DNA of 64,000 nucleotides from Apteryx mantelli (taxonomy: Eukaryota > Chordata > Aves > Apterygiformes > Apterygidae), in NCBI RefSeq assembly GCF_036417845.1, contig NW_027118693.1:2304001-2368000 (forward strand), given 5' to 3'. How positions within the stretch are numbered: the first letter of the stretch is position 1; the number at the start of each line of letters is the position of its first letter. Made by a program: the position numbers and the translations under genes. Below the pieces are notes generated by a model that was not told the DNA's origin, searched no databases, and was given only the letters and a program-made list of their open reading frames with translations. Shown piece by piece: positions 2,541 through 45,026 of this stretch.

Positions 2541-2583
2541 CTTCTTCGTGCTCCTGTCTCAGCAGGATGTACTGAAATTAGAC

Positions 2584-4960: not shown

Positions 4961-4969
4961 AAATCATTG

Positions 4970-5712
4970 GATACTGTAGGGAACAGAATGAGACCCTGCC
5001 AAGTCCAGACAGCACAGTGAGGGATGGCTGGATTTCAGCAGTGATTAAGGGAGAGTTATATGAGAAAAGGACAAGCTTCACACATAACTGGCATATTGGG
5101 GATCCTTCAGGGAGTAGACTCTTGCAGCACCAGCAGTACTGAGGTAACAATATCAGAAGCACCATATGAGCCAGGGGTTACCTAGCTAACAGTACCAGAA
5201 ATATTAAACTTGAGTACATAGGCAGTAAAACTGGGACCAATGAAGAAAAAAATACTTAGAGATGGGCTGTTTATTTCAAAGGGGATAAAGCTGGAGAAAG
5301 GGAGGGATCAAGCTGCATCATGGAAGAAGCAGCATGGGAAAATGGAGGCAAAGGGAATAAAAGGGGCCAGTCATGTGTAAGCAAGCTGCCGGGCCGTGTA
5401 CCTGGTCTCTGCGGTGTAGCCTATCATTGTATTAAATCCTATTCCTAGCTCTTTTCTGGGTGAGTGTGCTCACTGTTCTGCATGAGCGCATGTGTGGAAG
5501 GCTTGCAGATGTCAAGGCAGCCAGCTACCAGAGACACCCATGCGAGGGTGCGTGTGAGGTCTCCTGCAAGCTTTGAGTCTGATTAGCTGGTGAGCAAGAA
5601 CAAGACCAGGCCGTTTGTATCGTTCGTGTTTATGAGTGCTACTCGTGTCTCCGTGGTGCCTGTAAAGGTACTGTGCCCCTGCCGGAGTTGATTTTTTGGT
5701 GGTCAACTATGT
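4970..5712 (+). mobile_element. LTR-like segment (endogenous retrovirus), approximate bounds
   Basis: The order of signals resembles a retroviral long terminal repeat read on the plus strand: a TATA-like AATAAAAGG at 5356, a polyadenylation-type ATTAAA at 5431 followed by a T- and G-rich stretch, and a U5-like tail ending near GGTGGTCA at 5705. No target-site duplication was found, so the ends are approximate, and the left limit (a TGTAGGGAAC near 4974) is a guess. No gag, pol or env reading frame lies next to it, so it would be a solo LTR. The TATA to polyadenylation spacing is short but workable. Confidence 0.4.
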
Positions 5713-11360: not shown

Positions 11361-11368
11361 GACGTGGC

Positions 11369-11735
11369 GATGGATGTCCCCACGGTGGCCACCAAGGCAT
11401 TGAGATGGGGATCCCCACAGTGACCACCAAGGCATTGTGATGGGAGTCCCAATGGCGACCACCAGGGCTTTGTTGATGGGGGGTCCCCATGGTCACCACG
11501 AAGGCATTGAGATGGGGGTCCCTGTGGTCACCACCAAGGCATTGTGATGGGAGTCCCCACGGTGACCACCAGAGCTTTGTTGATGGGGGGTCCCCATGGT
11601 CACCACGAAGGCATTGAGATGGGGGTCCCCGTGGTCACCACCAAGGCATTGTGATGGGAGTCCCCACGGCGAACACCAGGGCTTTTTGATGGGAGTGGCG
11701 TCATGCACACAAGGCCATTGTGATGGGGCAGTCCC
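11369..11735 (+). repeat. Minisatellite, about 35-bp units
   Basis: About ten units begin GATGGG at a spacing of 34-36 bp (for example 11404, 11439, 11475, 11511, 11545). Each carries a TCCCC and GACCACCA core, and unit variants recur in a higher-order pattern of about three. The inverted equivalent lies at 35575-35745 beside copy 1 and has fewer units. Copy 2 lacks the array at the matching place (about 41960-42030). Confidence 0.85.
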
Positions 11736-11789
11736 TGTGGTGACCGTGTCTTTGCTGGGGCCAGAGCCCTGAGGTCCTCACTCCGAGGA

Positions 11790-11947
11790 GAGCGGCTTGA
11801 TCAGGAGGAAGCAGCTCCCCTTGGTGCCAGAGTGGCAGGCCTCTGGAAGAGGATCCTGGAGATGGGCAAGAGCAGCAGGCAAATGTCTGCTCCCAGCCCA
11901 TGGATGGGCTTCTAGGCACACAGGAGAGCAGGAGAGGCCACATCCCA
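11790..11947 (+). pseudogene. Broken exon of the tandem gene family (copy 3)
   Basis: Reading from GAGCGGCTTGATCAGGAGG, the peptide begins ERLDQEEAAPLGAR and continues to EMGKSSRQMSAPSPWMGF. It lines up with the copy 1 exon at 35383-35541 (ERLRQEAAAALGAR, then EMATERETNAHSQP). An in-frame TAG stands at 11913-11915. The splice donor that follows this exon in copies 1 and 2 (GTGAGC or GTGAGT) has become GCCACA here. None of the later family exons was found downstream, so this is a truncated remnant. It shows that arm A once carried the same gene, transcribed on the plus strand. Confidence 0.7.
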
Positions 11948-21790: not shown

Positions 21791-21862
21791 TGGCGATGCT
21801 GGGGATTGAACCCAGGACCTCCTGCATGCAAAGCAGGCGCTCTTCCACTGAGCTACATCCCC
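21791..21862 (-). tRNA. tRNA-Ala (anticodon TGC), acceptor pair 3-70 altered
   Basis: This 72-nt cloverleaf on the minus strand includes the discriminator A73. Every D-, anticodon- and T-stem pair is intact: D stem GCTC/GAGC, anticodon stem CCTGC/GCAGG around loop TTTGCAT with anticodon TGC, and T stem CTGGG/CCCAG around TTCAATC. A box TAGCTCAGTGG and B box GGTTCAATCC are canonical. A run of five T (minus strand, 21783-21779) follows within about 8 nt and suits a Pol III terminator. The odd point is the acceptor stem: position 70 is G, giving G3-G70 where alanine tRNAs carry the G3:U70 wobble that alanyl-tRNA synthetase recognises. All other acceptor pairs hold. It may be a single-base mutant, or an older inactive copy. 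Confidence 0.9.
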
Positions 21863-22642: not shown

Positions 22643-23176
22643 CAGGGCAGAACAGACAGCATTCACTAAACCCTGATTTATTCTATTTTAGCCCTAGTAA
22701 AGTGTTTGTCATGCTTGGTGGTGTCTCTGTGGCACAGCAGGGAGCGCATTTGGCTGTTAACTGAAAGCTTGGTGGTTCAAGCCCACCGAGGGATGGTGCC
22801 CTCGTGGTGGGGTGCTGCCTGAGGGGGTTGTGCTGCCCGGCACCCCAGGTTTTGCCCCCAGTCCCCATGAACTAGTGGAGAAAAACCTGCTCTGACTCTG
22901 GCTGGTGAATTGCTCAGGGAAGGACCTGTCTCCTGAACCAGGGCTGCTGTGAACAGAAGGGTCCTCGCTGGTGGGGCTGGTGCCACTGACCTTCCTGTTC
23001 ACACCTGTGTGTGTGCAGAGATGGGTCTTGCAGAGGGGAGTTACACTGGGAGGGAACAGGGAGGGGGAGAGGGGCATCAACAGTGTTAGGATCACCACCA
23101 AGCATGAGACACACACTTTACTATGGCTAAAATAGAACAAAACAGGGTTTAGTGAATGCTGTCTGTTCTGCCCTGT
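22643..23176. mobile_element. MITE-like element with about 82-bp terminal inverted repeats
   Basis: The left arm at 22643-22723 starts CAGGGCAGAACAGACAGC. The right arm at 23093-23176 is its reverse complement with only a few mismatches and a 2-nt indel. CAGGG-type ends occur in hAT-like DNA transposons, but no 8-bp target duplication was found, so the class is unproven. The interior has no transposase and holds a tRNA-Asn-like sequence directly inside the left arm. Confidence 0.5.
22723..22795 (+). tRNA. tRNA-Asn-like sequence (anticodon GTT), probably a pseudogene
   Basis: The 73 nt match the asparagine tRNA layout: GTCTCTG acceptor start, anticodon loop CTGTTAA, T arm GGTGG-TTCAAGC-CCACC and 3' GAGGGAT plus G73. 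Defects are a G7-G66 mismatch, an A12-C23 mismatch in the D stem, and several wobble pairs in the acceptor and anticodon stems. The nearest run of four T is about 55 nt downstream. The identification is firm but function is doubtful. It lies immediately inside the left terminal inverted repeat of a small element. Confidence 0.75.
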
Positions 23177-28640: not shown

Positions 28641-28744
28641 CCTGCTCCGTCTGCCTTCATTGCCATTCTCTGCACACGAGGATTTCTGTCACCATTTGCC
28701 TGAGGATCACCAAGGATTGCTGAGGAAAAAAAGCTTCAGCAACT

Positions 28745-28750
28745 TTTATT
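28745..28750 (-). promoter_or_regulatory. Polyadenylation signal of copy 1
   Basis: AATAAA on the minus strand about 115 nt past the stop codon at 28864. The paralogue has the same hexamer at 37163-37168. Confidence 0.65.
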
Positions 28751-28863
28751 CAAAGCAGGAGGCAGGATGGACTCTGCTCCAAGCTGAAGGCCTTCAGCAT
28801 GATGCCTTGCAGCTCTCTTGCTCTCCCTCTTTGTGCTGTGCACCTAGAGGTGCAGCCCCAACC

Positions 28864-29018
28864 TCAGGGTGCCTGTCTGGCACCTGCATCCTCGTAGAGT
28901 CCCTCTCCCTGCTGTGCAACACAGCCGCAAGGGAAAGCTCTGCACAGAGCCCGCAGCGCTCTCCTGAGGAGCGACGGCCGTCGCCTGGGAGCTGGGCTGT
29001 CCGGGAGGGCAGCGATGC
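28864..29018 (-). CDS. Copy 1 last exon, basic C-terminus
   Basis: The acceptor CCCCACAG begins GCATCGCTGCC, completing a Gly codon split with the 70-nt exon at 29224-29293. It encodes RRALRALCRAFPCGCVAQQ and ends QAP-stop. The copy 2 equivalent (37283-37437) is also exactly 155 nt with the stop at the same place. Confidence 0.75.
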
Positions 29019-32000
29019 CTGTGGGGAGAAGGAGAGCTGTGAGCGAGAGCCTGTGCGGGCTTGATCCCTGCCCCTGCTGAGGCCGGGCTGACCGTGGCTG
29101 GGGCACAGCGACTCTCTCCAGTGCCTCTGAAGGAGGGAGGGAGGCAGGGCTGCGCACCCCTGGCCTCGCTGGGGTTCACACCATCCCCAGGAAACTCTCA
29201 GCTCAGCCGTGCTGGAGACATACCTGTGTTGACCTCTGCCGTCTCAGTGGAGGACAGGCGTGGACTTCCAGCACCTCTGTGCTCAGAGGCAACCTGCATG
29301 GAGAAAGAAATCCAGCCTGTTTGTATGCAGTCAGCTTGTGACGACTGGAGTAATGCTGCCAAAAGCCCCGACATCCCAGGGGAGGGGACCTGCAGCTGGC
29401 ACGCCAATGGGACAGTGCTCATCATATGGACATCACAGTGGTGCTGGGCTGGAGGCCATGACAGGCAAATGGAGCCAGCTGGGTGCATGGCAGAAGGGGT
29501 CTTGCTGGCTGGTTGTGTGATGTGTCTGGTGCTGGGCTGCCCCTTCCCTCCTTGCTCTGTAGCTGTGCCCAGGGCAGACACCAGGGCAGGGGGTGGAGGG
29601 GACATGAGGCCTTGTGCACAGGGTATGGTCACCTCAGGCAGGCTGAAAGGCAGAGGCCTGGCCATGTCACCCATGGGACACAATGCAGGGGCAAAGGGCT
29701 GAGGGTGAGAGCTTGGCACCGTGGGCAGGTGGGGTTGGTGGCCCCTGGGAGGGGGCAGCTCTCCTCACCCACTGCGCACACCCCCAGGCTCACGCATCCG
29801 GCTCTGTTTGGTGGTGAGCGCTGACCCTGCACTCCTGTCTCACCTGGTGCCGAGGGCCTCTGGCCAAGGGAGAAGCCTCCAGGCTGGCTCCCAGGGGCAC
29901 TGGTGGGGCGAGAGGCACACTGCCGGGGTCACTGGCTGCCCCTCTGGTAGCTGCTCTGTTGGTGCTGGGGGGCGAGCGGGGCAGGGGGCTCTTGGCAGCA
30001 GCTCCCAACTCTGCCTCCTTGCTTGACACAATGTCCTCTTGGATCTTAGAAATGCAGGAGGTCTCCACTTTTAAAACCTCTTCATCCTGTGCTTCCTCTT
30101 CAGACAGGTCCACTTCTTCACTGTGCATCCCTTCGGACACTCTCTTCCCTGCTCCCTGCTCTGGCTCCTTCTTGAGGACGTGGGCTGTCGGCCGCTCCAG
30201 CAGCTCCTCTTCAGTTCTCACATCCCTGAAGAGCTCCAGGCGTGTGACATCTGGTTTCTGCAAGTCAGGGAATGAGGTTCTTCTTAAGACTTGCAATGAG
30301 AGAGGGAGAGGTGTGAAGGGAGAGGTTTTTTGAGAGCCAGCTGGGGCCACCCACCTCCCACTTGGTGCCACACAAGGCAGAGCAGCAGGCAGTGAGTTGG
30401 GTGTTGGGGCAGGAGTCCAGGCCTCGTGTCTGCCACATAGGCTGCCAGTAATGCTGCTCGCCCTCTCCCTGGGGCCTGGGACAGCCACTGGGCATCGAGA
30501 AGACTTGTAAGCATGCGTGTGGGCTTTAGCACTCAACACTGTGCTTCTCCCTTTTCTTCTTGGCACTCTTGCACTTTCCCCATTTGCAGGCAGACTCAGG
30601 CCCAACGGCAACACTGTGAATGCAATGACGGCCTGGGAGTGAGAAGGACCTTTTGCTAAGGTGCTTCTGTGCAAACTGCAGCAGATGCCTGTGGCTTTGC
30701 ATGTCCTTCAGGGTCCATACCCACCACAGGAATCCCCAGCAGCTGCCTGTGTGTGTTTGAGACCATTGGTTTTCAGAATGCTGTTGCGGTATTTTAGTGC
30801 CTGCCTGCTCTGGGGTCAGCTACTGCAAGTGCTTCTGCAGTTGAATTTCACCAACCCTCCCAAGCTGGCCTGTCCCCATTTAGGGTGTTTCCCCCAGTCT
30901 CTGCAATGGGACCTGTTGGCCCAGGAGTTGGGCAGTGCTGAGCAGAGCTGGGCTGGGAGGATTCAGCTGGTGCCAGGAGCCAGGAGCTGGGTAGCCACGC
31001 AGCCCCACTGCGGACCCTGCAGCAGCCGGTGCTGGGCACAAGGACACGTGTGACATCGGGGCTGTCGCAGCTCAGCGGGGTGGCTGGCACCAGGCACAGG
31101 GGAGGTGACAAGGAAAAAGGGTCCCTAAAACCAATGCTGGGAGATGACACCTTTTCCTCACCCACCCTGCCCCACACCGTCCTTCACACTCACCTCCTTT
31201 GCTTTGGGAGTGGGTCGCGCAGATGTGGTGAGGGAGAAAGGCTTCCTCTTGCTCTCACGTGCCTCAGACCTGCTCTCTCTTGGGCTGTCGTCCTTGCCCG
31301 GAAGAGGGGCTTTCTGGAGTTGCAGGAAGCTCAGCCCCGTGCGTACCATCCAGTTGTTGCTGAGCCCCTCCAGAGACTCTGCATTCCCCAAGAGGATTCT
31401 CAGATGCTCGGACACAAGATTGGGGTTTATGCGCAGGGGCTGGCTTCGAATGTGGGGGACGATGTTCAAACCTGGCTGTCGTGAACTCTTCCCTGCCCAG
31501 ATCCCCAGCCCGGCCCCCACACCTGGGGCAGCTGGGGCAACGGCCCCGCCAGCAGTGCTGGGGCCCCCGGGGGTGGTGGGCACTGGTGTGGGGTGGTCGC
31601 TAGCAGGCCCTGCTCGCTGGCACCTGGAGAGCTCCTCAGCGAGTGCTGCTGCCTCGGGCATGTGTCTCTCGAAGCACGTTTCATCCCTGCCAGTGTCTTG
31701 GTGGGATCTGCTCTGCAGCAAGACGTCCCCATCCGTGGTGTCAGCCACAGGGCGCGTGGTTTTGTCAGGCTCTGTGGTCTGGTCCTGGCCTCTGCTTGCT
31801 GACGCGTCTGGGCTGTCTGTGTGTGCCGACAGCCCCTGCACCACAGCCGTGCTGAGCTCCAATGCACCTTCACCCCTGTCTGGCTGTGATGGCTGCCCAC
31901 CGGGTCCTGGACTTGCACCTCCAGCACGGCTCCAGGCTGCCACCAGCAGCTGCCAGACTGAGTCCTGCAGGGCTTCGGCAGGTGGTGCGGGGCCATGCGG

Positions 32001-35000
32001 GACAGGTCCCCGGCTCTCAGCCCTCCCTGCCATACCCAGGTCTTGGAGGATGCCTTGAGGAAGGCCTGCAGACTCCCTGGGAGAAGGCGTTGTGGACTGG
32101 CGTTGGCCCATTTCACTGTTGTCTGCTCTCCTCCCTTCCAGTGTTGGCAATAGTTTTCCTATTATGTCCCTCACCAAGGAAATATTCTCAGCATTGAAGT
32201 CGCTGGTGGGAAAAAGGGACACAAGTTTCTCTGAAAGTGTTTTGATGAGCAGGGAGGAGACGGAGACGTTGCTGGCTTCGGGCAGTGAAGGCTTGGAGTG
32301 GCCGCAGGGCTCTGCAAGGTCCTGGTGCATTTCCTCCACTGTGCTGTCATCTGCACCAGGCAGCTGGGGTGATGGTTCTGCAGGGGTGCAGGCCTGGAGC
32401 CAGGCCCCAGAGATCCCCCTCAGCACCAGCCTGGCTGCAGCCTCGCACAGAGCTCTGCACACGCTTTGCAAGTACAGCTGCCCAAACTGCACCAGCAGCT
32501 GTGCACACACTGACTGCACCATGCTCTGAGCATCACTGTCTGCACCCAAGCACTCCTCGCAGAGGGGAGCTGGACCTTGCCCTCGAGACAGCTCCGTCAT
32601 GATGCTGCTTCTGAATTTCTCAGCGGGGGACACTTGCCGTTCAGGAGGCTGCTGCTCTCTTCTTTGGCATGCTGAGAAGTCACTTAGCAGAGAGTCATTG
32701 CCGTGTGCTGCTGTGTCCAAGGGTTGTGCCTTGGCCCGCTGGGCACAGGTGTCTTTGGAAGCTGGCAGCAACCTGCTCCTTAGCTCATTGCATGTTTCCT
32801 CAAAAAGCTCATCCAAATCAACCCCAGCTGGCGCCTGTGGCAGCCTTGGCAGTGTTGGGCAGGTTGCCCAGGGTTTGCCCTGCTCCTCATATGCTGGCCC
32901 GCCTTGGTTCTCCTCTTTAGACACCGCCTGGGCTCCCGGGGAGGAGCAGGATTGCCCGGAAAGCTGCTGGTTAATTGGGGGAAGAGTTCTCCTCTTTACG
33001 GGTCCTTGCAACCGCCATGGTTTTCCCAGCGCTTGTCTGGAAGACCGAGGCCTGACTGCAGGCGTGGAGCAGACACGTTCTTCAGTTCCTCTGGTCAGGG
33101 CACAAACATCCCTCCTGGATAGTTGAAGGGAAGTTGAAGCAAGATGAGAGGGCTTTTGTTCTCCCACTGCCAAACCAAGAGATGGAATCTCTTCTGCAAC
33201 TAGCCCCCTGTTTCTCAGAGGCTCTGCCTGGAATTCCTGAGGGGACCGTGCTCTTGTAAAAGCCCTGCAGGACAGTTTCTCCCTGCGCTCCGGAGGAGCC
33301 TTCTTTATAATGCAGACGGAGGCTCCCAGACATTCCGCCCTCGCCAGAACATCTTGGACAGTGTCCTCCGCCATCTGGGTGACCATTGCATTGTCGGTGG
33401 TGAGGTCATCCACGAGGTCTTGGCGTTTGAGCGCCTTTAGAAGCACACCTTCTCTAGGGGCAGGGTTTCTGAGGTGTGGAAAGCTTTCCTTGCCAGCTGG
33501 ACGTCGTTTTGGTTTGACATCTGCTGTGGATGGATATTTATAAGAGGCTTGGCTGAAAGGATGCATCTCTGCTCTGGAGCGCTCCATGGGAAACTCCGGC
33601 TTGAGTCGTGCCCTTAAACCTTCCTTTGACAAACTGGGAAGGTGTGTGGGGCAAAACTGTGGGGCCGGTGGGGCTTCTCCCATGGGAGTCCTCTGCATGG
33701 GTCGCTTCATTGGGGCTGAGAGGACGACCCCGTGGGTACTCTGTGAGGGGAATCTCCCAGGCTCCTCACAGCTGCTGAAGACAGGCGTTGAGCGTGCCGA
33801 TGCTTGTGCGCTTGCTCTCGACATCTCTGCATACTCGCAGGCAAGTGGGTGTAAGATCCCTATAATCTGCCTCAAAAACGCGGTCATGATGTTCTCAATT
33901 TCCCTGTTCCTTTCTTCCAGCCTGTCCCTCTGCAAGAGAAGCAAACAGGAAAGGCCAAGTGAGCCTGCTCCTTCCCTCCCTGCTCTCCATCCATCCCACC
34001 TGGCAAACATCCTCCACCCCTGACACCAGCCTCGATGGCTGCGCTCTCCCATGAATGTGTCTGCTACCCTGCTCCAGTCAGGCAAGGAGAGGACTCATAA
34101 TGGCAGGGCAAGTGATGGGCACAGGAGGCTTTCTCAGAGGCCCCAAGGGATGCCCTGGCAGACTGCTGGGCCTGGCTGTGGTCCCAATGGGCCAAGGGAG
34201 GATTCCTTCTGGGATCCTGGAGAAGCTGCCTCTTGGTTTCCATGGGGCAGGCGAGGAGGTGAATGGGCTTGATGGGGCCATCTCAAGGGCACACAGCTGT
34301 GTTTCTGAGGCCAGCGCTGGGTTCTGATGCTGAGTGGAGGGTGGTGAGAGCAGAGACAGGCAGGGGCTGGCTGACTGAGGGCTTTGGGGAACCTTCTTTG
34401 GGGGAAAGGGCCTGCAAAGAGGCAGAAGGATTTGGGGAAGCTGAGAAGCGCTATGAGATCCTTGGAGAAGCCAAGCAAGAAGCAGCTATGGGAATACTGT
34501 GCTCTTCAAGGCCAGTTCACGCTGGCAGCAGAGCCTGGGGAAGAGCCCCTCTATTGCTGAGCTGGAGGCCAGAGAGCCAGGAGCTACAGCACTGTCCTGA
34601 TGGCAGTGGGAGCTGCAGGTGCTCCCAGGCCCTGGGAGCTGGGCTGCCTGGTTGCCTGCTGAGAGATGGGAAACCAAACCTGGGCTCTGAGGGTTGCACA
34701 CTCTGGTCCCCATGTGTGCTTGAAGAGGGGGCAAATGATTTTCACGTAAGGCACGGGTTTGAAGCGTGAACTCCCCATGCAGAGCAGGCAGCCAGCCTGC
34801 AAGGGGGCAGAGACCTCCTGGCCTCTCCAGGCACCTCCTGTCTGGTTATCAGCAGGTCGGAGGAGTCTGGAGGAGGCTTTACCACTGTCTCTGTTCAGCC
34901 ATTTACCTTTTGTCTCTTCTTCCCAGAGGCCCGAGAGCTCCTTGGACCAGGGAGTGAAGGCAGCCCATCCCGGTGGGACGAAGCCCTGACCCGGCTGCGC

Positions 35001-35541
35001 TGCATCGCTGCCAGCATCTGCCTGTGGCCCAGCTGTGGGGAGACAGAGAGTCAGGATGCAGGCAGTTGTGTTTGCAGACGCAGCCCCTGAAGGGCAGGAA
35101 ACCCTGGCTCTGTTTCTAAGGCAAGAACACGGCTGCCACAGCCAGGCTGAGCTCAGCCTGCAGCTGCTCTCTGCTTCTCAGCGCTGAGCTCACCGCAGCC
35201 ATGTGGGCCTTGGAGCATCCGCATGCCCCACTCTGCCCTGGGTGCCAGGAATAAATACCCCACTGCTGCCGGAAGACCTCAGGGCTGGCTGTCCCACCCC
35301 AGCTCCCCCTCCCCACATCCTCACCCTCTCCGTGTGGGTCCCGTCCCCACTGCCAGCCTCTCCCTCCAGACCCATCGCTCACCTCTCTGCGCTCCTGAGC
35401 ACCCAGGAGCCCGTCCGCAGGCTGCGAGTGGGCGTTCGTCTCCCGCTCCGTGGCCATCTCCACAATCCTCTGCCGGAGATCTGCAGTTCTGGCACCGAGG
35501 GCAGCTGCTGCCTCCTGCCTGAGCCGCTCTCCTCAGAGTGG
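28864..35541 (-). CDS. Uncharacterised multi-exon protein, copy 1 (open)
   Basis: Coding exons from splice signals and comparison with copy 2: about 35541-35383 (ERLRQEAAAALGAR, donor GTGAGC), 35032-34907, 33929-31194, 30257-29844, 29293-29224 and 29018-28864. The five from 35032 on join in phase with no stop, giving about 1,166 residues; a further exon near 35110-35220 is uncertain and contains a stop. The product is mostly disordered, rich in Ser, Pro, Glu and Arg, with helical blocks and no signal peptide or membrane segment. The last exon encodes a basic tail (RRALRALCRAF). I do not recognise the family; the repeated helical SSLLIKTLSEKLVSLFPTS-type blocks recall testis fibrous-sheath proteins such as FSIP2, but that is an unverified guess. 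The CpG island upstream of copy 2 was not duplicated beside copy 1, so its own promoter is unclear. Confidence 0.75.
29844..30257 (-). CDS. Copy 1 exon e, 138 codons, acidic
   Basis: The acceptor CTTGCAG precedes AAACCAGATG and the donor is CACCAG|GTGAGA. It begins KPDVTRLELFRD and has an acidic run near VDLSEEEAQDEEV. Copy 2 aligns as KPEITRVELLKD but starts 21 bases further upstream because the same acceptor there reads CTTGTGG. Confidence 0.75.
30258..31193 (-). other. Intron of copy 1
   Basis: GT-AG intron of about 936 nt between exons d and e. The equivalent in copy 2 is only about 166 nt (38963-39128). Confidence 0.6.
31194..33929 (-). CDS. Copy 1 large exon, 912 codons
   Basis: The acceptor TTGCAG precedes AGGGACAGG and the donor AAGGAG|GTGAGT closes the exon; both are canonical and phase 0. 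Rough residue map within the exon: 1-40 helical (RDRLEERNREIENIM), 170-205 helical (DLTTDNAMVTQMAED), 370-400 (DLDELFEETCNEL), 465-505 Cys-rich amphipathic (SVCAQLLVQFGQLYLQSVC), 555-600 (SSLLIKTLSEKLVSLFP, LVRDIIGKLL), 640-770 low complexity, 820-860 conserved with copy 2 (PHIRSQPLRINPNL against CHIGGEPLRVHPDN), then FSLTTSARP. Shared blocks such as PHGPAPPA in both copies confirm real coding sequence. Confidence 0.8.
33930..34906 (-). other. Intron of copy 1
   Basis: Donor GTAAAT at 34906, acceptor TTGCAG ending at 33930. No other feature was seen within. Confidence 0.6.
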
Positions 35542-35574
35542 GGACCCAGGGGCTCTGGCCCACACAGGGACACG

Positions 35575-35745
35575 GTCACCACGGGGACCCCGACCATCAC
35601 AATGGCCTTGAGGGCACGATGTCACCCCCATCACAAAGCCCTGGCAGTCGCCATGGGGACCTCATGGCCATGTCCTGGCAGTCCCCCATGGGGACCCCCC
35701 ATCACAGTGCCTTGCTCTCCCCATGGGCATCCCCATCTTTGCCTC
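35575..35745 (-). repeat. Minisatellite beside copy 1
   Basis: Units with CATGGGGACC and CATCACA cores are the inverted equivalent of the arm A minisatellite at 11369-11735. They lie just upstream of the first recognisable exon of copy 1. Confidence 0.7.
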
Positions 35746-35749
35746 CAGC

Positions 35750-36590
35750 CCTCCGGGATCAGTTTCCGAGCCCAGCTGGGAGATGGGTTCTGGGGAAAAG
35801 GAAGAATCTTCCTCTGCTCAGCTCTGTGCTCCCCTCTGCCTTGCCCAGACAGCTACTCTCCTTGACTCCTTCGGTATCCAGGCACTCACAGTCCCCAGGG
35901 AGGTCTCCACAGATGTGCTGGCCCAGGCTCAACAGGGGAGGGCCAGGGCTCACAGGACACCTCAGCAGAGGCCCTTGCAGCTGGCCTGGGTCATTGACAG
36001 TGCTGTCGGGAGAACCCTGGGACACAAAGGTGTGCCCAGGTGTGGGGAAGCCCTGGGGAGCCTCGTGGGGGCAGTCGCTGGGGGCAGAAGGGGCAGTTGG
36101 GGTTGCAGCAGAGCTGGGTGTCAGCCCCTGGGATGGCCAGCGAGGCCATGCAAAGCCAGGATGTCCATGCATAACTCTCCCTCCACAGAGGCCAGTGAAG
36201 TGCTGCTGCACGTAATGCCACAGCAGATGAGTTGAGACTCATGTCGCTGTTGCTCTGGAGGTGCCTGGGCAGGTAACCAGCCTGGCTAGAAACACCCTGT
36301 GGGGGCACGGCACCATCAGAGCAAGCTCCCAGCAGTGCGTGGGGGTAGGACACTTTTAGGGGAAGCTCACGGCACAAAGGGGCAGGGCACTCTCGGGGAC
36401 GGTCACAACAGTGGTGGGTAGCCAAGGTGGGTAGGAGGTCCTGGGGACAAGCAGAGCTGGAGTCAGCAGCGTGCCCGGGCAGCAAGACCAGCCCTGCACT
36501 CCAGCTCTGTTAGCAGAGTGCAGCCAGCAGGGCGAGGGCAGGCATTGCTCCCCTCGGCTCAGCATGGGAGAAAGCATGTCTGGGCACAGC
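35750..36590. other. Tandem-duplication junction region
   Basis: Homology of copy 1 to arm A fades by about 35900, and the copy 2 3' flank (CR1 fragment) begins near 36600. The breakpoint of the tandem duplication should lie in this interval. No gene is supported. Confidence 0.4.
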
Positions 36591-36599
36591 GTCCAGTTT

Positions 36600-37080
36600 G
36601 GGCTACCCAGCCCCAGACAGACGCGCATGCGCTGCCACGAGCCCAGAGGAGGCCCCCGAGCTGGTCGGGAGCTGGAGCAGGGGACGTGTGAGGCGAGGTC
36701 AAGGGCGCTGGGTCTGTTCACCCAAGAGAAGGGAAGGTGCAGGGGGATCTTGCTGCTGCCTGCAGCTGCTAAGGGAAGGGTGGGGACAGGATGGAGCCAG
36801 AGCCTTCCCGAGGTGCCTGGGGACAGGACGAGGGGCAACGACACGAGGGGCAACGACACAAGGGGCAGCAGGGAAAATTCCCATCTGAGAGTGCAAAAAG
36901 CCTTTGAAGCCTAAGCGTGGTCCAACAGAGACACTCAGAGCTTGACACTGCCAGGACCTGCAAAACGCCTTCTGGCTGCCACACTTGCAGCAGGACATTG
37001 GAGCAGAGACCTCCAGAAGCACCTTCCCACCCCAGCTGCTCTCTGACTGGCTGAACGGGTTTCCTTCCAGACCTCACTGC
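36600..37080 (+). mobile_element. CR1 LINE 3' region, duplicated
   Basis: GATGGAGCCAGAGCCTTCCC and GGTGCCTGGGGACAGGACGA match CR1 and the paralogous fragment at 28165-28640. A 17-bp segment (GGGGCAACGACACGAG) is locally repeated two to three times near 36830-36870. Confidence 0.65.
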
Positions 37081-37162
37081 CTTCATTGGCATTGCCTGCA
37101 CTAGTCTTCCTCTGCAGATTTACCTGACACCAAGTAACACGGGTGGAAAAGCTTCCAAAGGT

Positions 37163-37168
37163 TTTATT
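37163..37168 (-). promoter_or_regulatory. Polyadenylation signal of copy 2
   Basis: AATAAA on the minus strand about 115 nt past the stop at 37283, at the same position as in copy 1. Confidence 0.65.
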
Positions 37169-38248
37169 TGAAGCAGAAAATGCCTGTCACCAACCAGGGT
37201 TTGTGAGAGCTGTGGCAGCATTTCTTTAGCACCCAGGACAGTCTCCATCACTCTTCCTCTTTGCTCTGCACCAGCCCCCATCTCAGGGGACCTGCCTGGC
37301 ACTTGCATCCACACACCGTTCCTCTCGCTGCCCTGTGACACAGCGGAAGCGGAAAGCTCTGCGCAGAGCTCGAAGTGCTGTCCTGAGCCGCAAGGGCCAT
37401 CGCCTGTGAGCCGCTGTTTCCGGGAGGGCCGCGTTGCCTGTGGGGGGAAAGAGAGCGGTGGGCGAGGGGCTGCATGGGTGCAGGCAAGCACCTGCCTGTC
37501 CCCTGACACCAAGGGCTTTCCCGAGGGGTCGTGGCCTCGGCACAGCCAGCTCCCGAGCGCTTACTGCTGCCGGCCTCGGTGCCACTTGCTATGCCGGGAC
37601 AGGCCCACCGACCCCAGAAGGCCTCTCAACTCGGGTACATGCCTGGGTCAGCCTCTGGTGTGTGCCTGAAGGAAGAGGATGACTTCTCCTCATCTTTGGG
37701 CTCAGACGCAACCTGCATGGGGAGAGCAAGAACACTCACCCAAGTGCCATCAGCTGGCAATGCTCAGGATACTGGTGCCCCGGGATGTACGGGGGGAAAG
37801 GGTTTGCGGTGGGGGGATGCTGCCAACAGCTGCGAGTCCCAAGGGAAGGCACCTGCGGCTGGCACAGCAATGGGACAAGGCTTGTCAAGGAGTTGCAGCA
37901 GCAGGGCTGGGCTGGGGGCCATGATGGGCAGGGGGAAATGGAGGCAGCTGGGTGCGTGGCAGAAGGGGGCTTGCTCGCTGGGTGTGGGAGGGGGCTGCTG
38001 CTGGGGCCGCCCCTTCCCTCCTCGCTCGTCACCCACGTGCCTTTGGCACTTTGAAATGGAGATGACCAGGCATCTCCCCCATGCGAGATATTGCAGAGGG
38101 CAAATGGCTGGGGGTGACCGCTTGGCACCAGGGCCAGGGGGGTCCCATGCGATGGGGCACCTCTCTGCACCCACCCTGCACACCCCACACACAACATGCA
38201 CAGCAGCTCCCTTTGATGGTGAGTGCCCATGATGTGCTCCTTGCTCAC

Positions 38249-38962
38249 CTGCGGAGGAGGGCCTCCAGCCAAGGGAGAAGCTGCTGGCTTTATTTCCTCA
38301 GGCCACAGTGCTTCGAGAGGTGGGCTGCTGCTCTCCTCCCAAGTGCCTCCAGCCAAGGGAGACGCCTCTGCTGCAGCTTCTGCAGGAACTGATGGAGAGG
38401 GAGGCACAGTTTCCCCTGCATCCTGAGGGCTGCTGGCTGCAGGGGAGGCCTCCAGCTTTGTTCCTGTGCTCGCTGATGGGGTGAGAGACACGCTGTCCCC
38501 TGCGTCTTGAAAGCCATCGGCCAAAGCAGATGCCACTGGCTCAGCTCCTCAGGGCGATGCTGGGTCAAGAGCCGTGCTCTCCACGTCACTGGTTGCCTCC
38601 CTGGTAGCGTCTCCGGCCTTGACATCGGGCGAGCAGGGCACCTTCTGGGGGCACGTCTCCATATCCGTCAACAGGCTCCGGAGGCTAGGTCTGACCCAGG
38701 TCACGCACAAGGAGGTGTTTTCCTCCAGCTCCTCCAATTGCAAAGGCTCTTCATCACTGTCCTCTTCCTCGTCAGTCCAGTCTGCTTGCTCATCCTGCAG
38801 CGCTCCCAGGACTCGCTTCCCTCTTCTCACCTCCCGCTCCCTCTTCGGGGCATGGGCATACAGACGCTCCAGCACCTCCCACTTGGACCTCGCGTCCTTG
38901 AGGAGCTCCACTCGAGTGATCTCAGGTTTCCACAAGTTACAGAAGGAGTTTCTGGCAAGGAG
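38249..38962 (-). pseudogene. Copy 2 exon e with in-frame TGA
   Basis: The acceptor CTTTTAG precedes CTCCTTGCC and the donor is CCGCAG|GTGAGC. It has 238 codons with a TGA at codon 138. After the stop the frame continues through short Pro/Ala/Ser repeats (EASPLAGG, AASPLAGG) like the end of the copy 1 exon (EASPLARG), so the stop is a later event or marks a shortened protein. Confidence 0.6.
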
Positions 38963-39128
38963 CTAAAAGAAGAGAGGGCAATTTGTGAAGGCAGCAGCTT
39001 TTCCCACCAGCAAAGGCCTCCTGCGGTCCCGCCAGCAATGCCACAATCAGGCTGTCACAGTGCCACGCAGCAGCTGGCCCCACCGCAGGGAGAGGTACCA
39101 CCTGCCCCGACCCATCCCTTGCACTCAC

Positions 39129-40949
39129 CTCCTTGGGTTTGACGTTCAGTGATCCTGACGCCGTCAGGGAGAAACGTTTCCCCTCGCCCTCCTCTTCCTC
39201 GCCCTCGCTCTCCTTCAGGCTCTGCTTCTTCCTCTGGAAACAGGCTTCTCGGAGCTGCGCCAAGCTCTGCCCGGTGCGTGCCAGGCAGCTCCTCTCGAGC
39301 TCCTCCAGCGGCTGCATTTTGATCGTGAGCACTGACAGATACTGCGAGGTGTTGTCCGGGTGAACGCGCAGCGGCTCTCCTCCAATGTGGCAGATGATGC
39401 CCAAAGGCTGCTGTTTTGGGCCCTGCCCTGCCCGTGCTCGTCCTTGTGTCCCTGGCCCACCGCCCTTGCCCGGGGAAGCTGGTGCACCAGCCCCGCTCAC
39501 CTCCCTTTTGCCCCCACGAGCGTGGGGATCAGGCCTTTGCTGAGCTGCGATGGCTGTGCTTTTGCCACGCTCTGTGGTCTGCTCCTGGGCTGGCAAGGCC
39601 AGTGGTGCTGCATCGGTGGTGCGTGCCTCGAGCCCCAGGCCTGCGTCCTCCAGAGCCACGGCAGGTGGTGCGGGGCCATGTGGGGCAGGCCGCTGGCTCT
39701 CAGCCCTCAGTTCCATGCCAACTTCTCCAATGATGCTCTGAACAAGGCCCGAAGGCTCAAGCAGCGAAGGCGAGGGTGACTCAGGTGCAGCCATTTCACT
39801 GTGCAACCTGGCAGCGATGTCTTTTGCAGAGCTGCGTGGTACCTCTGCCAAGGGCGGGCTGCTGAGTCCAGCCTCCTCTGAAACACCTTTGGCTGTCCTT
39901 GCACACTGCAGGGGACCATCCGGGGCAGAAGAAGCTGTTTCTTCCTGGAGCATCTCGGCCGGGGGCACTTGCAGTTGGGGAGGCTGCAGGTCTCCACCTT
40001 GGGACCCGGAGGACTTGCTTAGCACCAAGTCCTGGCTCGGCAGCATTGCGTCCAAGCGTTGTGCCTTGACCTCCTGGGCACAGGCATCTCTGGCAGCTGC
40101 GGGCAGCTTGCTCAGTAGCTCCTGGCACATTTCTTGGCCAGTCCTGGCAAAACTCTCTCCTGATGGGGACTCTGGCAGCCTTGGCACTGTCAGGTAGCTC
40201 GGCCAGGCCTCGTCCTGCTCCTTGTATGCTGCTGTGCCTCGCAGCTCCCTTTCAGCAATGGTCTGTGCTCCTGGGGCAAAGCAGGAGTTTCCTGAGGGCT
40301 GTCGGCTTTTCAGGGCAAGAGCTGTCCTGGTACCATCAGCCTGCAACATCCTGCCTTTTCCCAGTGCTGCTCCAGAAGACCCAAGCCTCGGCTCAGGAAA
40401 GGAATGAAGATGCTCTTGAATTGCCCAGGGGAGAGCACGAGCTTCCCGCTTGGATTTTTGAAGGGGAGGCAAGGAAAGATGGGATGCCTTTAGTTCCTCC
40501 TCTTCCACGCTCTTCCCTGACTCCAGAGACATCCCAGCACCACTAACAGGCAGGAAAGGTTCCCTGGAAGCAGCTTCACTGGAATTCATAGCCAGCCTCT
40601 CTAACCCCCCCGTCACTCTCACCACCATTCTCCTGGCCACACCTTCCATATCCATGGCATTGGCCCTGCCTCTCGGAGAAGATCTGCAGGATGTTTCCAG
40701 AGCAGGCAGCTTGGTTTCACTTGTAGATCCTGCTCTTTTACCTGCGGAGGCCTCCAGGCCTCCATGTGCCTGCCTGGCTGCCTTGCTTGGCAGAGGTGGT
40801 AAGCCGGGCAGATGTGCTGTCTCTGCTCTTGCACAAGTCCTGCCGGGCAGTGTCTCCCTGGGCCCCAAAGGAGCCCTCTTTAGAAGGCCCGTGGAGGCAT
40901 GCAGAGCTTGCACCCTGACAGGCACATCCCTGGCAGTCTCCTCCACCAT
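39129..40949 (-). CDS. Copy 2 large exon, 607 codons, open
   Basis: Open throughout. It begins MVEETARDVPVRVQALHAS (copy 1: MAEDTVQDVLARAECLGAS) and ends FSLTASGSLNVKPKE before GTGAGT. An acidic stretch (SEGEEEEGEGKR) differs from copy 1. Ser/Pro/Glu-rich, probably disordered; function unknown. Confidence 0.65.
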
Positions 40950-42029
40950 CTGCAATTGAAGTCCACGAGAAAGGCCAAGTTACTGCCGTCCTTTCCCCCC
41001 ACCCTCCATCCTTCCCACATGGAAACTTCCTGTGGCCCCAACACCCTCAACCACAGCAGCACTCTCCCATGCAGGCGGCTACCACCCTGCTCCCAAAGGC
41101 TGGGTGGGGAGAGGGTTTGTCACCATGGGGCAAGAGACGGGCAAAGGCAGCTCCCTCGGACACCCCGACGCATGTCCTTGCAGACGTCTGTGCAGAGCAG
41201 GCGGTCAGCCTGCCGGGGGGCAGAGACCTCCTGGTCTCTCCCAGCACTTCCCGCCTACTTCTCGGCAGCTACGGGCAGTCAGGCAGAGGCTTTGCCACCA
41301 GCACTGCTCAGCTCTGTACCTTTGCAATGCCGTGTTCAGAGGTTCATGAGCTCTGTGGGCCGGGGAGCGAAGGCAGCCTGTCCCATTGCTGGGATGAAGT
41401 CAGGGCCCGGCTGTGCTGCATTGCTGCGGACAGCTCCTGCTGGCCCACCTGTGGGGAGAAGGATGCACATGCTGGAGGCGGTTGTGTTGGTACGAGCGGC
41501 TCCTGAAGCACAGGAAACCCCAGCCCCGTGTCCAAGGGAAGCTCATGGCTGCACACAGCCTGGCTGAGCTTGGCCCACAGCTCCTCTCTGACCCTCAGTG
41601 CAGAGCTCATGGGCTCCGTGGGGGCCTTGGAGTATCCAGGTCACTGTGCTTTGTGCGAGAGAAAATCTCCAGGGCCAGGAATAAATGCCCCCTTCCCAGA
41701 GGAGCTCATGCCTGGCTGTCTTCTCCCAGCTCCCCTTCCGAACCATCCTTGTGCTCTCCGGGCACGTCCCATCCCTGCTGCCTGCCTCTCCCTCCAGCCC
41801 CATCACTCACCTCGCTCCTGCACTCCTGCCTGCCTGGCAGCCTGTCTGTGGGCTGGGAGCAGGCGTTTGCCTGTTTGTCCTCCAGTTTGTCCCCCACGCT
41901 GCGTGCATTTCTCTACAGGCACTTCAGAGAGCTGCCTCCTTGTGCTGATTTCCCAGAAAAGGGGTGAGACTTTTCGCCATACAGTTGCCCTGCAACCTCT
42001 TCCTTATTTGCCTGCATACTCTGTGGTCA

Positions 42030-44000
42030 GCTCCTCTGGGGTTGCTTTTCTCCGCATCACCCTGCACCTTTTCCTTCCCATCCCACGCCATCACTTCCTC
42101 ACTCTTTTTTGAGACATCTTCTCCCCTGAGTCATTCCTACTTTAAGGCTCTCCTCACCACCTTGCCCAGATGGTTGACCATCAGGTCAGCAGACGGGAAC
42201 AGTCTCCGTCCAAAGGAAGCGTCACAACCCACAGCCTCACTCCCTCTCTGTGGGCTCAGCTTCAGGACCTCCTCCAGCTGCTCTAACCCCAGGCCAGCCG
42301 CGGAAGCAGGAGCTCCCTGCTCCTGTGAACCTCTTCCTACTCATAGGGCTCATTTTCTGCCACAAATCCCTCTCATCACAAAATGGCAAGGACTGTCACA
42401 GGCTAAGAGCAGGACTGGAGCCTATGGGCCGTGCACTGCTACAGCTTGGTTTTACACCACCCTCAGCTCCATGTGTCACCAGACCCTAACCTGCACCATG
42501 AAAAGGGAAAAAAAAGCTGAACTCTAGTGCTGAGGTTCATGAGACGGGCTTGTTTCTCCCCACACTCATTTACCACCCACAAGCCCCCTGCCCTGTGGCT
42601 GCCCTGAAGAGCTGCGCCGTAGCCCCTTGACTCTGCCCTTTCCCATCGTGCCCCTGACACAGTCAGAATGAAAGGAAGCCCTTGAGTTGGAACAGCAGGG
42701 GAATGGAGCCAATACCATTAATTAACTGCACTTGATATGCAACCTACTGACTTTTATTGAAGAAAAAAAGGTTCTTTTCTGTTCTTCCTCTCAATTTCCT
42801 GATTTTTCCCATAACAAGAAAGCAGAAAATCTGTATCTTTTAACAGGCTTCCCTAGTTTTCAATACCTCCCTTCTGCACCTTTTAAGCACCCCCTCTCTC
42901 CCCCACCTCCCACACACGCACGCGCACACACATACACACTAGTGCCCTTCCTTTGCTTCTGCAGCATGCTAAGATTGAGAAAGCAGAAGTGGGGAGGGAA
43001 AAAAAAGGAGATTCAAGAATGAACAGCGGAGGGAAGACAAAAGAACATTGTGTATGACAATGCTTGCAAGCCCTGTCAGACACACAGAAGAAGCTCCTAA
43101 AAAGGGAACCAGTTCTGAACCCCTGTGGAATTTGGTACCTATGGTTATCCATGTTGCCAGGGACACATGGCTGTAATAATCACTCCTGAGATGACAAAGC
43201 CTTCCAAGAGGCAGCCTAGCCTGGAGCAGACCACTTCCAGGACCAGGACAGAGCAGGGGAGATATCTTGAGGGTGCTCCCCTTCTCGTCTTAGCCAGCCC
43301 TCACTTTTCATAAACATGTTTCTGATCAAGCTTTACAGCATGGGAACTACAGGGAGAGGAAAGCACAAATCATCACTTGTGCACTTCCAGATCAGCACAC
43401 ATGTGGGAAGGGGCAGTCATTAATAAACTGGTATCAAGGTACATGAAGGCAATATCAATTGTGGTATCTGAAATGCAGAATTAAAACATGAATGCTCAGG
43501 ACATATTTCTTCTTCTTGCATCAGTGCATGCTCAGATCTGCACGGCTGCTGCCGCTGGAAGCATGTTCCGTGCATCACTGGGCCAGGGCCAAGGCCACCC
43601 CACGGGCACTGGCTGAAGCCACCAGTCCCTCTTGCACTGACTCTCTCGCGCTCCACGGTGAAGCGGCAGCGTTGCGTCCCAGAATGTCCCCAGAACAAAG
43701 CTGATATCCTTAACTGCACCCTTCCTGTCATACAGAGAACATCGGCTACTAAAGTCGAACAGAAAGAATTGGAGGGGCTGATGTTAAATGCAAATCCATT
43801 CCTCTAAAAATACATTCTCCGTCAGCACATGCTGGTATTTCAGAAGGTAAAAACCAAGGCAGCAAATAATGCCTGTGTCCTCCAGTTCAGCTTTTAGTCA
43901 CAGACACATTTCATGCTGCTCCTTCAGTCACAACTCGCCAGCATCGCTCTCCCGGCAGACACAAAGCACAACCCAGCCTTCTCCAGGGATAACTACAAAC
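42030..44000. other. Intron-like DNA of arm B
   Basis: Non-coding sequence matching arm A 9046-11100 in reverse. A CA-rich tract lies near 42904-42940. It is probably the first intron of copy 2. A further diverged partial copy lies in the plus orientation at 47490-47900. Confidence 0.5.
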
Positions 44001-45026
44001 AGGGTGAACATGGGTTGGGGAAGCTCCGGGGGAAGGAGCGGCCCTGGAAGCGCAGGGTCATTCCCCCATGCAGAGGGGGCAGCGTGGGGCAGGGCTGCTC
44101 ACAGCTCCCGCTCGCCCCCACAACACTTCCCCAGGGGCTTCTCAGGAGGGAGCGCAAGGCAGGGACGACACCAAAGGCAAGGAGCTGCCCTGAGTCTCCG
44201 CTTTCAGGTCCCTGCTGCTGGCGTGGTGGGAAGGGAAAAGGAGCTGCCAAGCCTGGACAAGAGCCCCAGACTCCAAAGCCCACACAGAGATCAGCAGGTC
44301 TGCGAGGAAGCTCAGAAAGTGCCTTCGCCCACTCCCTGCCCACGGACAGCACCAGCAGCACCTTGGCTGGCCCCAGCAGCCTCTGTCCCAGCTGCTCCCG
44401 AGCACCTGCAAACACGCAGATGCCCCTGCACACCGCCCCGCTGCCGCCAGCTGCCTGTCTGTGGGGCAGAGCTGAGTGCACAGGGGCTGCCACGGCGGCT
44501 GGGCGCCCGGACAGGGAAAACACGCAGCACACACAAACAGCTGCCAGCAGCAAAAGCTCCAGGCACTGCAGACACGGCCAGAGAAGGAGAGGAAACGAAA
44601 GCAGAAATGCTGTGGCAGCGGGAGTTTGGAAACCCCCCTCCTATCCCCTCCACTGCAGACGTTGCCCTCCGAGCAAGCCCCCGCGCACCCTCCCCACCCC
44701 GCACCGCCTCCGCCCTGGACGCTGCGGGGGCCAGGCCACGAGCCACCTCCGCTGCCGCCACACCTCCGGCACAGGACAGGGGCCTCGTTCCTGCCGCGCG
44801 CCCGTGTCCCGCTGCCCACACAGGGGCTGAGAGCCACGGCCCTGCGACGCCTCCTCGCGCAGCTGGCAGCACTGCTGCGGCAGGGCAAGGCTGTCCTCAG
44901 GGCCGGGCTCTCTCTGCCCCCCGGGCTTCCCCCAGCACCAGCAGCACAGCGTTTCCCCTCCTTTCGGCCCTGCCTGTGCTGCTCCGCGGCTGCTCCGCGG
45001 CTCCCTGGGCAGCACGCTGCGGGGGG

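What the first reader, a model, noticed from the sequence alone, without database searches (positions are those of the whole stretch)
28864..41957. Unrecognised tandem gene family with a preserved exon plan
Two minus-strand copies share exon order, phases and exact lengths for the last two exons (70 and 155 nt) while the protein has changed at many positions. Length conservation under heavy substitution suggests coding constraint. Copy 1 is open for about 1,166 residues across five phase-matched exons. I recognise no domain; the helical blocks resemble testis fibrous-sheath proteins only loosely.
Basis: partly seen in the sequence, partly recalled or inferred. Interest (0 to 1): 0.8.

Follow-up and report, generated by a model that had tools for sequence, protein, structure and literature searches.

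The report
Amplified kiwi FSIP2-like sperm-tail genes
The two neighbouring genes are shortened relatives of FSIP2, a structural protein gene of the mammalian sperm tail, and in the kiwi this pair has been copied at least eight times in one chromosome region, with one gene of the pair still largely intact and the other mostly breaking down.

Summary
Copy 1 is open for 1,166 codons over five spliced exons; a further 5' exon with an ATG gives 1,191. The last two exons are 70 and 155 nt in both copies. "Unrecognised" is wrong: both copies match Pfam PF15783 (FSIP2) above its cut-off, and kiwi, rhea, emu and ostrich have relatives, mostly uncharacterised or misnamed. The genome is kiwi, Apteryx mantelli. 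The pair is a two-gene module present eight times on the 5.65-Mb contig C282, including a 99.7% identical inverted pair. Exons diverge as fast as noncoding parts, but indels are rarer in exons. Type I (copy 1) has an intact main exon in 8 of 8 modules and exons B-F fully open in 6 of 8; type II (copy 2) has B-F open in 3 of 8, and the window's copy 2 carries two stops and a GC donor. A sequence resembling canonical FSIP2 on C13 is broken. Best reading: a weakly constrained, amplified palaeognath "mini-FSIP2" family, probably for the sperm-tail fibrous sheath. Expression was not testable.

The parts
35383..35457 (-). Type I (copy 1) exon A: ATG and 25 codons (MATERETNAHSQPADGLLGAQERRE), GT donor
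   Evidence: ATG present in 8 of 8 modules; GT donor 8 of 8; corresponds to the start of the older NCBI kiwi model P0006 of the C13 gene
34907..35032 (-). Type I exon B, 126 nt
   Evidence: AG/GT in 8 of 8, no in-frame stop in 8 of 8
31194..33929 (-). Type I exon C, 912 codons; PF15783 match (profile 619-703 best here; 149-320 in related copies on other contigs)
   Evidence: open in 8 of 8 modules
29844..30257 (-). Type I exon D, 414 nt, entered through an acceptor 27 nt downstream of the older one; PF15783 708-789
29224..29293 (-). Type I exon E, 70 nt
28864..29018 (-). Type I exon F, 155 nt with stop; tail RRRPSLLRRALRALCRAFPCGC
   Evidence: similar tail in type II, C13, C19 and ostrich P0002
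41811..41905 (-). Type II (copy 2) exon A homologue; no ATG where the emu model starts, in 8 of 8 modules
   Evidence: against P0001
41320..41448 (-). Type II exon B, 129 nt; in-frame TGA at 41346-41344 in the window
   Evidence: TGA also in M3 and M4, absent in 5 of 8
39129..40949 (-). Type II exon C, 607 codons, open here; PF15783 616-715
38249..38962 (-). Type II exon D, 714 nt; in-frame TGA at 38551-38549 in this module only
37643..37712 (-). Type II exon E, 70 nt; donor GC in the window, GT in the other 7 modules
37283..37437 (-). Type II exon F, 155 nt with stop
28694..44694 (-). Two-gene module (type II upstream, type I downstream), aligned in eight copies on C282
   Evidence: seven modules 98.15-99.73% identical; M1 diverges strongly upstream of about 42000

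Best explanation
The finding is a two-gene module of a palaeognath family of shortened FSIP2 relatives ('mini-FSIP2', covering much of the PF15783 region), in kiwi (Apteryx mantelli). Shown: PF15783 membership, a six-exon plan shared with a dispersed paralogue and NCBI's models of it, three old paralogue lineages (type I, type II, C13 type), and amplification of the module to at least eight copies on one contig. Inferred: the type I genes are expressed in spermatids and make a largely disordered 1,191-residue scaffold. As proposed for mammalian FSIP2, it would dock AKAP3/4-type anchoring proteins in the fibrous sheath that palaeognath sperm retain. Amplification would hold dosage while single copies decay, so frame and splice sites are kept mainly in type I and the amino acids drift almost freely; type II is mostly being lost in kiwi. 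Expression, AKAP binding and location are not shown.
For: PF15783 above cut-off in both copies and in each exon D, and in paralogues on C13 and C19. Relatives only in emu, ostrich, kiwi and rhea among the six proteins returned by three searches; the C13 protein carries the source name 'Fibrous sheath-interacting protein 2 C-termin...'. NCBI kiwi proteins of the C13 gene use the same exon blocks. Eight modules. Type I: exon C intact 8 of 8, B-F open to the end 6 of 8, ATG 8 of 8, GT/AG 8 of 8; exon C N 78, S 54, stop 0 against a neutral 87.4/41.7/3.0, P 0.04 for each of N and stop. Indels per kb lower in exons in 6 of 6 comparisons, e.g. 1.65 v 5.28 (C25), 0.90 v 3.04 (C333), 0.16 v 0.84 (M1). 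An AKAP_110 gene without stops exists (C1, 691-aa open frame). Emu and tinamou sperm have full fibrous sheaths, Neognathae do not; FSIP2 interacts with AKAP4, and fibrous sheaths were absent in FSIP2-deficient mouse sperm (PMC11276731, passages).
Against: Exon substitution equals noncoding substitution in 6 of 6 comparisons. Whole type I CDS omega-like 0.77 is not significantly below 1 (P 0.09), and type I exon D has 12 N to 1 S. In the C23 and C25 comparisons most exon indels are not multiples of three (5 of 14, 6 of 16 and 2 of 10 are). Type I exon D has lost its older acceptor. Two of eight type I copies stop 39 codons early. Type II B-F is open in 3 of 8. No kiwi type I protein came back from the protein search. 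No expression data. One paper search for kiwi sperm with fibrous sheath gave nothing relevant. AlphaFold2 gives no fold for the emu relative beyond one helix (mean pLDDT 37).
Confidence: 0.6

Rival explanations
1. The module is now non-functional: a pseudogenised, recently copied segmental duplication that looks open because the copies are young.
For: Exon divergence equals noncoding divergence in 6 of 6 comparisons; type II lesions in 5 of 8 modules and no exon A ATG in 8 of 8; every C23 match longer than 300 codons carries in-frame stops; type I exon D acceptor lost in 8 of 8.
Against: Type I exon C: no stop among 132 changes where 3.0 are expected (P 0.04), N below neutral (P 0.04; 0.0095 for seven copies); the only indel there is 6 nt; type I splice sites kept 8 of 8 with the shifted exon D acceptor.
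Confidence: 0.3
2. Copying is driven by the repeat-rich duplicon, not by the gene; any coding benefit is incidental.
For: Part of the type II 5' region recurs on many contigs, inside a stretch that is 98.7% identical over 7 kb between C10 and C355; ten decayed AKAP_110 places lie on contigs of which several also list such fragments; an inverted pair of modules on C282.
Against: On C282 the whole two-gene module was copied, and the two genes differ in decay although they share neighbourhood and age.
Confidence: 0.35
3. Fast change in type II and type I exon D reflects diversifying selection (sperm competition) rather than relaxation.
For: Type II exon C in seven copies: N 49 against a neutral 42.4, P(N<=obs) 0.984; type I exon D 12 N to 1 S.
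Against: Small numbers, several uncorrected tests; in type II the excess sits in the gene with the most lesions.
Confidence: 0.12
4. The proteins are nucleolar or SR-type proteins, as the ostrich records are named.
For: Ostrich records are called 'nucleolar and coiled-body phosphoprotein 1-like' and 'serine/arginine repetitive matrix protein 2-like'.
Against: Only PF15783 was matched in the Pfam scan at E up to 1. The names probably reflect low-complexity similarity (inference).
Confidence: 0.03

Closest known systems
FSIP2 (fibrous sheath-interacting protein 2), PF15783
   Same: Above-cut-off match over the later part of the profile (615-789, and 149-320 in type I relatives); a donor-like GT follows the homologous codon (KPKE|GT here, KPEE|GT in the C13 5.15-Mb remnant).
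   Different: 1,191 codons (type I) or 962 (type II, exons B-F) against 6,907 residues in human (length from PMC11276731); largest exon 912 codons; tandem and amplified; nearly neutral amino-acid change.
Kiwi C13 gene (P0004, P0006 LOC106482691) and rhea LOC134145482 (P0005)
   Same: PF15783, homologous exon blocks and splice sites, same kind of C-terminal tail in C13, P0006 and P0005.
   Different: Separate paralogue lineage (100/100). Kiwi-rhea protein identity 79%. NCBI's P0006 leaves out parts of exon C, and P0004 ends after exon D.
Emu LOC135329235 (P0001), ostrich P0002 and P0003
   Same: Type II lineage, 100/100 support; emu 75% and ostrich P0002 60-66% to the window's copy 2.
   Different: Their models read through where the window's copy 2 has stops; the emu model begins with a type I-like start, perhaps a fusion of neighbouring copies.
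Ampliconic testis gene families of mammalian and Drosophila sex chromosomes (recalled; PMC6690552 seen in a listing with the start of its abstract)
   Same: Near-identical multicopy genes, inverted repeats.
   Different: Chromosome type of C282 unknown; expression unknown.

Membership tests
FSIP2 (PF15783) | Match to the FSIP2 profile above the curated cut-off | tested here: met
   71.2 and 74.5 bits (cut-off 27) for the two large exons, 33.4 and 36.4 bits for the following exons
FSIP2 (PF15783) | Very large protein (6,907 aa in human) | tested here: not met
   Largest exon 912 codons, whole type I 1,191 codons; so these are FSIP2-related genes, not FSIP2 itself
FSIP2 (PF15783) | Shared exon boundary with canonical FSIP2 | tested here: inconclusive
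   Donor-like GT after the homologous codon in the C13 5.15-Mb remnant; no intact canonical gene was at hand to compare
FSIP2 (PF15783) | Partner AKAP3/4 present in the genome | tested here: met
   AKAP_110 match on C1, 291.5 bits, 691-aa frame without stop; which AKAP it is was not tested
FSIP2 (PF15783) | AKAP4 binding; fibrous-sheath location; testis expression | not testable with these tools
   No expression, proteome or binding data
Ampliconic gene family | Several near-identical copies over one region | tested here: met
   8 modules on C282; 7 of them 98.15-99.73% identical over 16 kb; M3/M4 inverted at 99.7%
Ampliconic sex-linked family | Location on a sex chromosome | not tested
   No marker search for Z or W was run

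The most novel reading that the evidence does not exclude
In kiwi, and perhaps in palaeognaths at large, the giant FSIP2 gene has been lost and its sheath role passed to a family of small FSIP2-like genes that evolve almost freely in sequence but are held by copy number, in an ampliconic array; pieces of its partner family AKAP3/4 spread in subtelomere-like duplicons alongside. This would be a case of a structural sperm protein replaced by amplified short paralogues.
Probability: 0.25. Interest if true: 0.72.

Novelty: new variant of a known kind. Interest (0 to 1): 0.5.

Why it matters
A review reports a reduction of the sperm fibrous sheath in birds: ribs and columns in emu and tinamou, simplified in all Neognathae (PMC11276731, passages). 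A family related to the sheath protein FSIP2, found here only in palaeognaths, amplified and weakly constrained, while the one canonical-like FSIP2 sequence found in the genome is broken, makes the molecular side of that reduction testable. It also gives gene models to proteins now called uncharacterised, nucleolar or SR-like in four ratites.

Tried and rejected
Rejected: 'long open frames of 1,100-1,284 aa' in the C23 array. The open_frame column suggested them, but the two C23 loci read (L037, L040) hold no frame over 585 and 365 aa. Rejected: Pfam hits DZR_2 (E 0.0023) and Alpha_E3_glycop (E 0.009) as chance; that scan took 144 of the 244 ORFs of 75 codons or more outside the finding. A solved-structure search gave nothing (best E 0.95). 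AlphaFold2 of the emu relative gave no fold except one helix at residues 53-105, so no fold search was run. Gap lengths between type I and II: exon D 6 of 6 and exon B 1 of 1 multiples of three, but exon C only 5 of 13, so not decisive. Not answered: synteny of the C13 FSIP2 remnant (PF05172, NUP35) and a genome-wide count of the duplicon by a 34-base pattern. Paper searches listed no paper on a bird FSIP2-like family; only open-licence papers are held and only the top rows were seen.
Full report
OBSERVATION. The claimed gene structure is real. Copy 1 (here type I) on the minus strand has exons B 35032-34907, C 33929-31194, D 30257-29844, E 29293-29224 and F 29018-28864; joined they are open for 1,166 codons with GT/AG at each junction. 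Upstream lies exon A with an ATG at 35457, which makes 1,191 codons; the ATG is present in 8 of 8 modules. Copy 2 (type II) has the same order and phases; E and F are 70 and 155 nt in both. The window's copy 2 is broken: TGA in exon B and in exon D, and a GC donor after exon E.

WHAT IT IS. Both large exons match Pfam PF15783, FSIP2, far above its cut-off (71.2 and 74.5 bits against 27), and so do the following exons (33.4 and 36.4 bits). Three protein searches returned six distinct proteins, all palaeognath: emu LOC135329235, two ostrich records named nucleolar and coiled-body phosphoprotein 1-like and serine/arginine repetitive matrix protein 2-like, two kiwi models and one rhea protein. Each search scored only about 8,000 candidates within a length range, so absence from other birds is not shown. 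The C13 gene of this genome is 99% identical to an Apteryx mantelli protein lying on a contig of 28,588,406 bases, the length of C13, so the genome is kiwi. NCBI's kiwi proteins for that gene use the exon blocks found here: the rows seen place P0004 on exons B and C and P0006 on exons A to D, and the sequences continue, P0004 through exon D and P0006 to the exon F tail that I translated from C13. P0006 leaves out parts of exon C, and P0004 has another start and no exon F. The last exon ends in a basic tail with cysteines (RRRPSLLRRALRALCRAFPCGC in type I; similar in type II, C13, C19 and ostrich P0002).

COPIES. In the own genome (408 contigs, 1.504 Gb) the type I exon gave 67 matches, 50 of 886 candidates being scored; PF15783 gave 54, 52 of 139 scored; the type II exon gave 78, 72 of 3,843 scored. 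All are lower bounds. Contig C282 (5.65 Mb) holds eight modules with type II upstream of type I, between 1.98 and 5.41 Mb. All eight were fetched and aligned over 16 kb: seven are 98.15-99.73% identical to each other, and M3 and M4 lie in opposite orientation at 99.7%. The eighth (M1) differs strongly only upstream of about window 42000. Contig C23 holds 20 places of decayed type I relatives between 10.33 and 11.64 Mb (my count of the rows); every match there longer than 300 codons has in-frame stops. Other type I or II relatives lie on C25, C29, C333, C6, C8 and C19, and the C13-type gene on C13.

CONSTRAINT. Type I exon C is open in 8 of 8 modules. Exons B-F are open to the end in 6 of 8; M3 and M4 stop 39 codons early. 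Type I splice sites are GT/AG in 8 of 8 when exon D starts at 30257. The older acceptor, CAG in the loci read on C25, C23 (two), C333, C13 and C19, is CAA in all eight C282 copies. Type II is open through B-F in 3 of 8 (M5, M6, M7); lesions are a shared exon B TGA (M2, M3, M4), a shifted frame in the last exon of M3 and M4, a window-only exon D TGA and GC donor, a stop in M1 and a frameshift in M8. The exon A ATG of the emu model is absent from type II in 8 of 8. Distinct changes were counted against a context-matched neutral simulation. Type I exon C: N 78, S 54, stop 0 against 87.4, 41.7 and 3.0 (omega-like 0.69; P 0.04 for N and for stops); without M1, 59, 47 and 0 (0.59, P 0.0095 for N, 0.09 for stops); type I B-F, 102, 62 and 1 against 110, 51 and 3.5 (0.77, P 0.09 for N, 0.10 for stops). 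Type II exon C 54, 18 and 1 (1.49); type II B-F 83, 30 and 3 (1.37). Type I exon D runs the other way, 12 N to 1 S. Several tests were made and none was corrected for number.

Divergence of exons and noncoding parts is equal: 14.9 v 15.5% and 14.8 v 15.3% (two C23 loci), 10.0 v 10.6% (C25), 4.4 v 4.2% (C29), 5.3 v 5.4% (C333), 2.2 v 2.3% (M1). Indels per kb are lower in exons in each of these six (4.4 v 8.3, 5.0 v 8.5, 1.65 v 5.28, 1.10 v 1.66, 0.90 v 3.04, 0.16 v 0.84), though in C23 and C25 most exon indels are not multiples of three. Between type I and II in exon C, NG86 gives dN 0.48 and dS 0.62 over 479 codons of aligned blocks that I chose by length and identity. This is weak protein constraint with preference for the frame. 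Three paralogue lineages are old: type II groups with emu and ostrich (100/100) and the kiwi C13 gene with rhea (100/100); type I was sampled in kiwi only.

CANONICAL FSIP2. The only FSIP2 match of a different make-up is C13:5153385-5154005, AT-rich, with three in-frame TAA. Its one minus-strand frame of 120 or more residues in the 10 kb read is 184 residues long (54.6 bits to PF15783), followed by a frame break; beyond the break the homologous exon end KPEE is followed by a donor-like GT. I read this as a broken canonical FSIP2. Synteny could not be checked, because the search did not complete, and scoring of PF15783 candidates was capped.

SURROUNDINGS. A piece of the type II 5' region recurs on many contigs; on those whose length I know (C7, C10, C19, C25) the listed fragments lie within about 4 Mb of a contig end. 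Two such places, on C10 and C355, are 98.7% identical over 7 kb; they hold the exon A, B and early C region and also resemble window 9046-11936 and 40443-44109. AKAP_110, the family of FSIP2's partners AKAP3/4, has a 691-residue frame without stops on C1, weaker matches on C3 and C9, and ten decayed places with stops: C333 (two), C10, C20, C132, C380, C371, C11, C285 and C25. On C10 and C333 one lies about 37 kb from a listed type II fragment. A common duplicon is therefore likely only for some, and hitch-hiking is as good a reading as function. No AKAP_110 match lies on C282.

MECHANISM. Shown: homology, exon plan, amplification, uneven decay. From the literature (PMC11276731, passages): FSIP2 is a fibrous-sheath component that interacts with AKAP4 and AKAP3, sheaths were absent in FSIP2-deficient mouse sperm, emu and tinamou have full sheaths and Neognathae do not. 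Inferred: type I encodes a disordered scaffold of the kiwi sperm sheath whose dosage is kept by copy number. AlphaFold2 on the emu relative is mostly below pLDDT 50 (887 of 997 residues) with one confident helix at 53-105, which corresponds to the start of type I exon C; six sequences are a thin alignment, so this is poor evidence for disorder.

CHECK. On holding the report against the calls I corrected the count of decayed AKAP_110 places (ten, not nine), the identity range, the reach of the NCBI models, and added the spacing and indel results that go against the reading.

Noticed in passing
C10:30082690, C333:1878135 and 3675324, C20:147224, C132, C380, C371, C11:1949230, C285, C25:1335562: Ten decayed AKAP_110 (AKAP3/4-family) places with in-frame stops; on C10 and C333 about 37 kb from a listed type II FSIP2-like fragment, elsewhere farther or with none listed.
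   Followed up: partly
window 40443-40955 and many contigs; L042, L044: A fragment of the type II exon C with a 192-residue open frame recurs genome-wide (3,843 first-look candidates, 72 scored), often near contig ends, inside a stretch 98.7% identical between C10 and C355.
   Followed up: partly
L039 (C13:5148500-5158499), minus strand 4829-5380: AT-rich remnant that looks like the canonical FSIP2 gene, with stops and a frame break.
   Followed up: partly
G000:C23:10.33-11.64 Mb: Twenty places of decayed type I relatives with in-frame stops, TGA the commonest.
   Followed up: partly
window 2527-3544, + strand: Olfactory receptor split over two ORFs (PF13853): probably a frameshifted pseudogene.
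   Followed up: no
window 21791-21862 (-) and 22722-22796 (+): tRNA-Ala(TGC) and tRNA-Asn(GTT) predictions.
   Followed up: no
window 11369-11693: 35-bp minisatellite; the same kind of array lies next to the exon A fragment in L042 and L044.
   Followed up: no
L044 4462-5049, + strand: ORF of 196 residues with a retroelement-like look (impression only) beside the duplicon fragment; not searched.
   Followed up: no
C282 M3 (2.643-2.659 Mb, -) and M4 (2.699-2.715 Mb, +): Inverted pair of modules, 99.7% identical: palindrome-like arrangement that would favour gene conversion.
   Followed up: no
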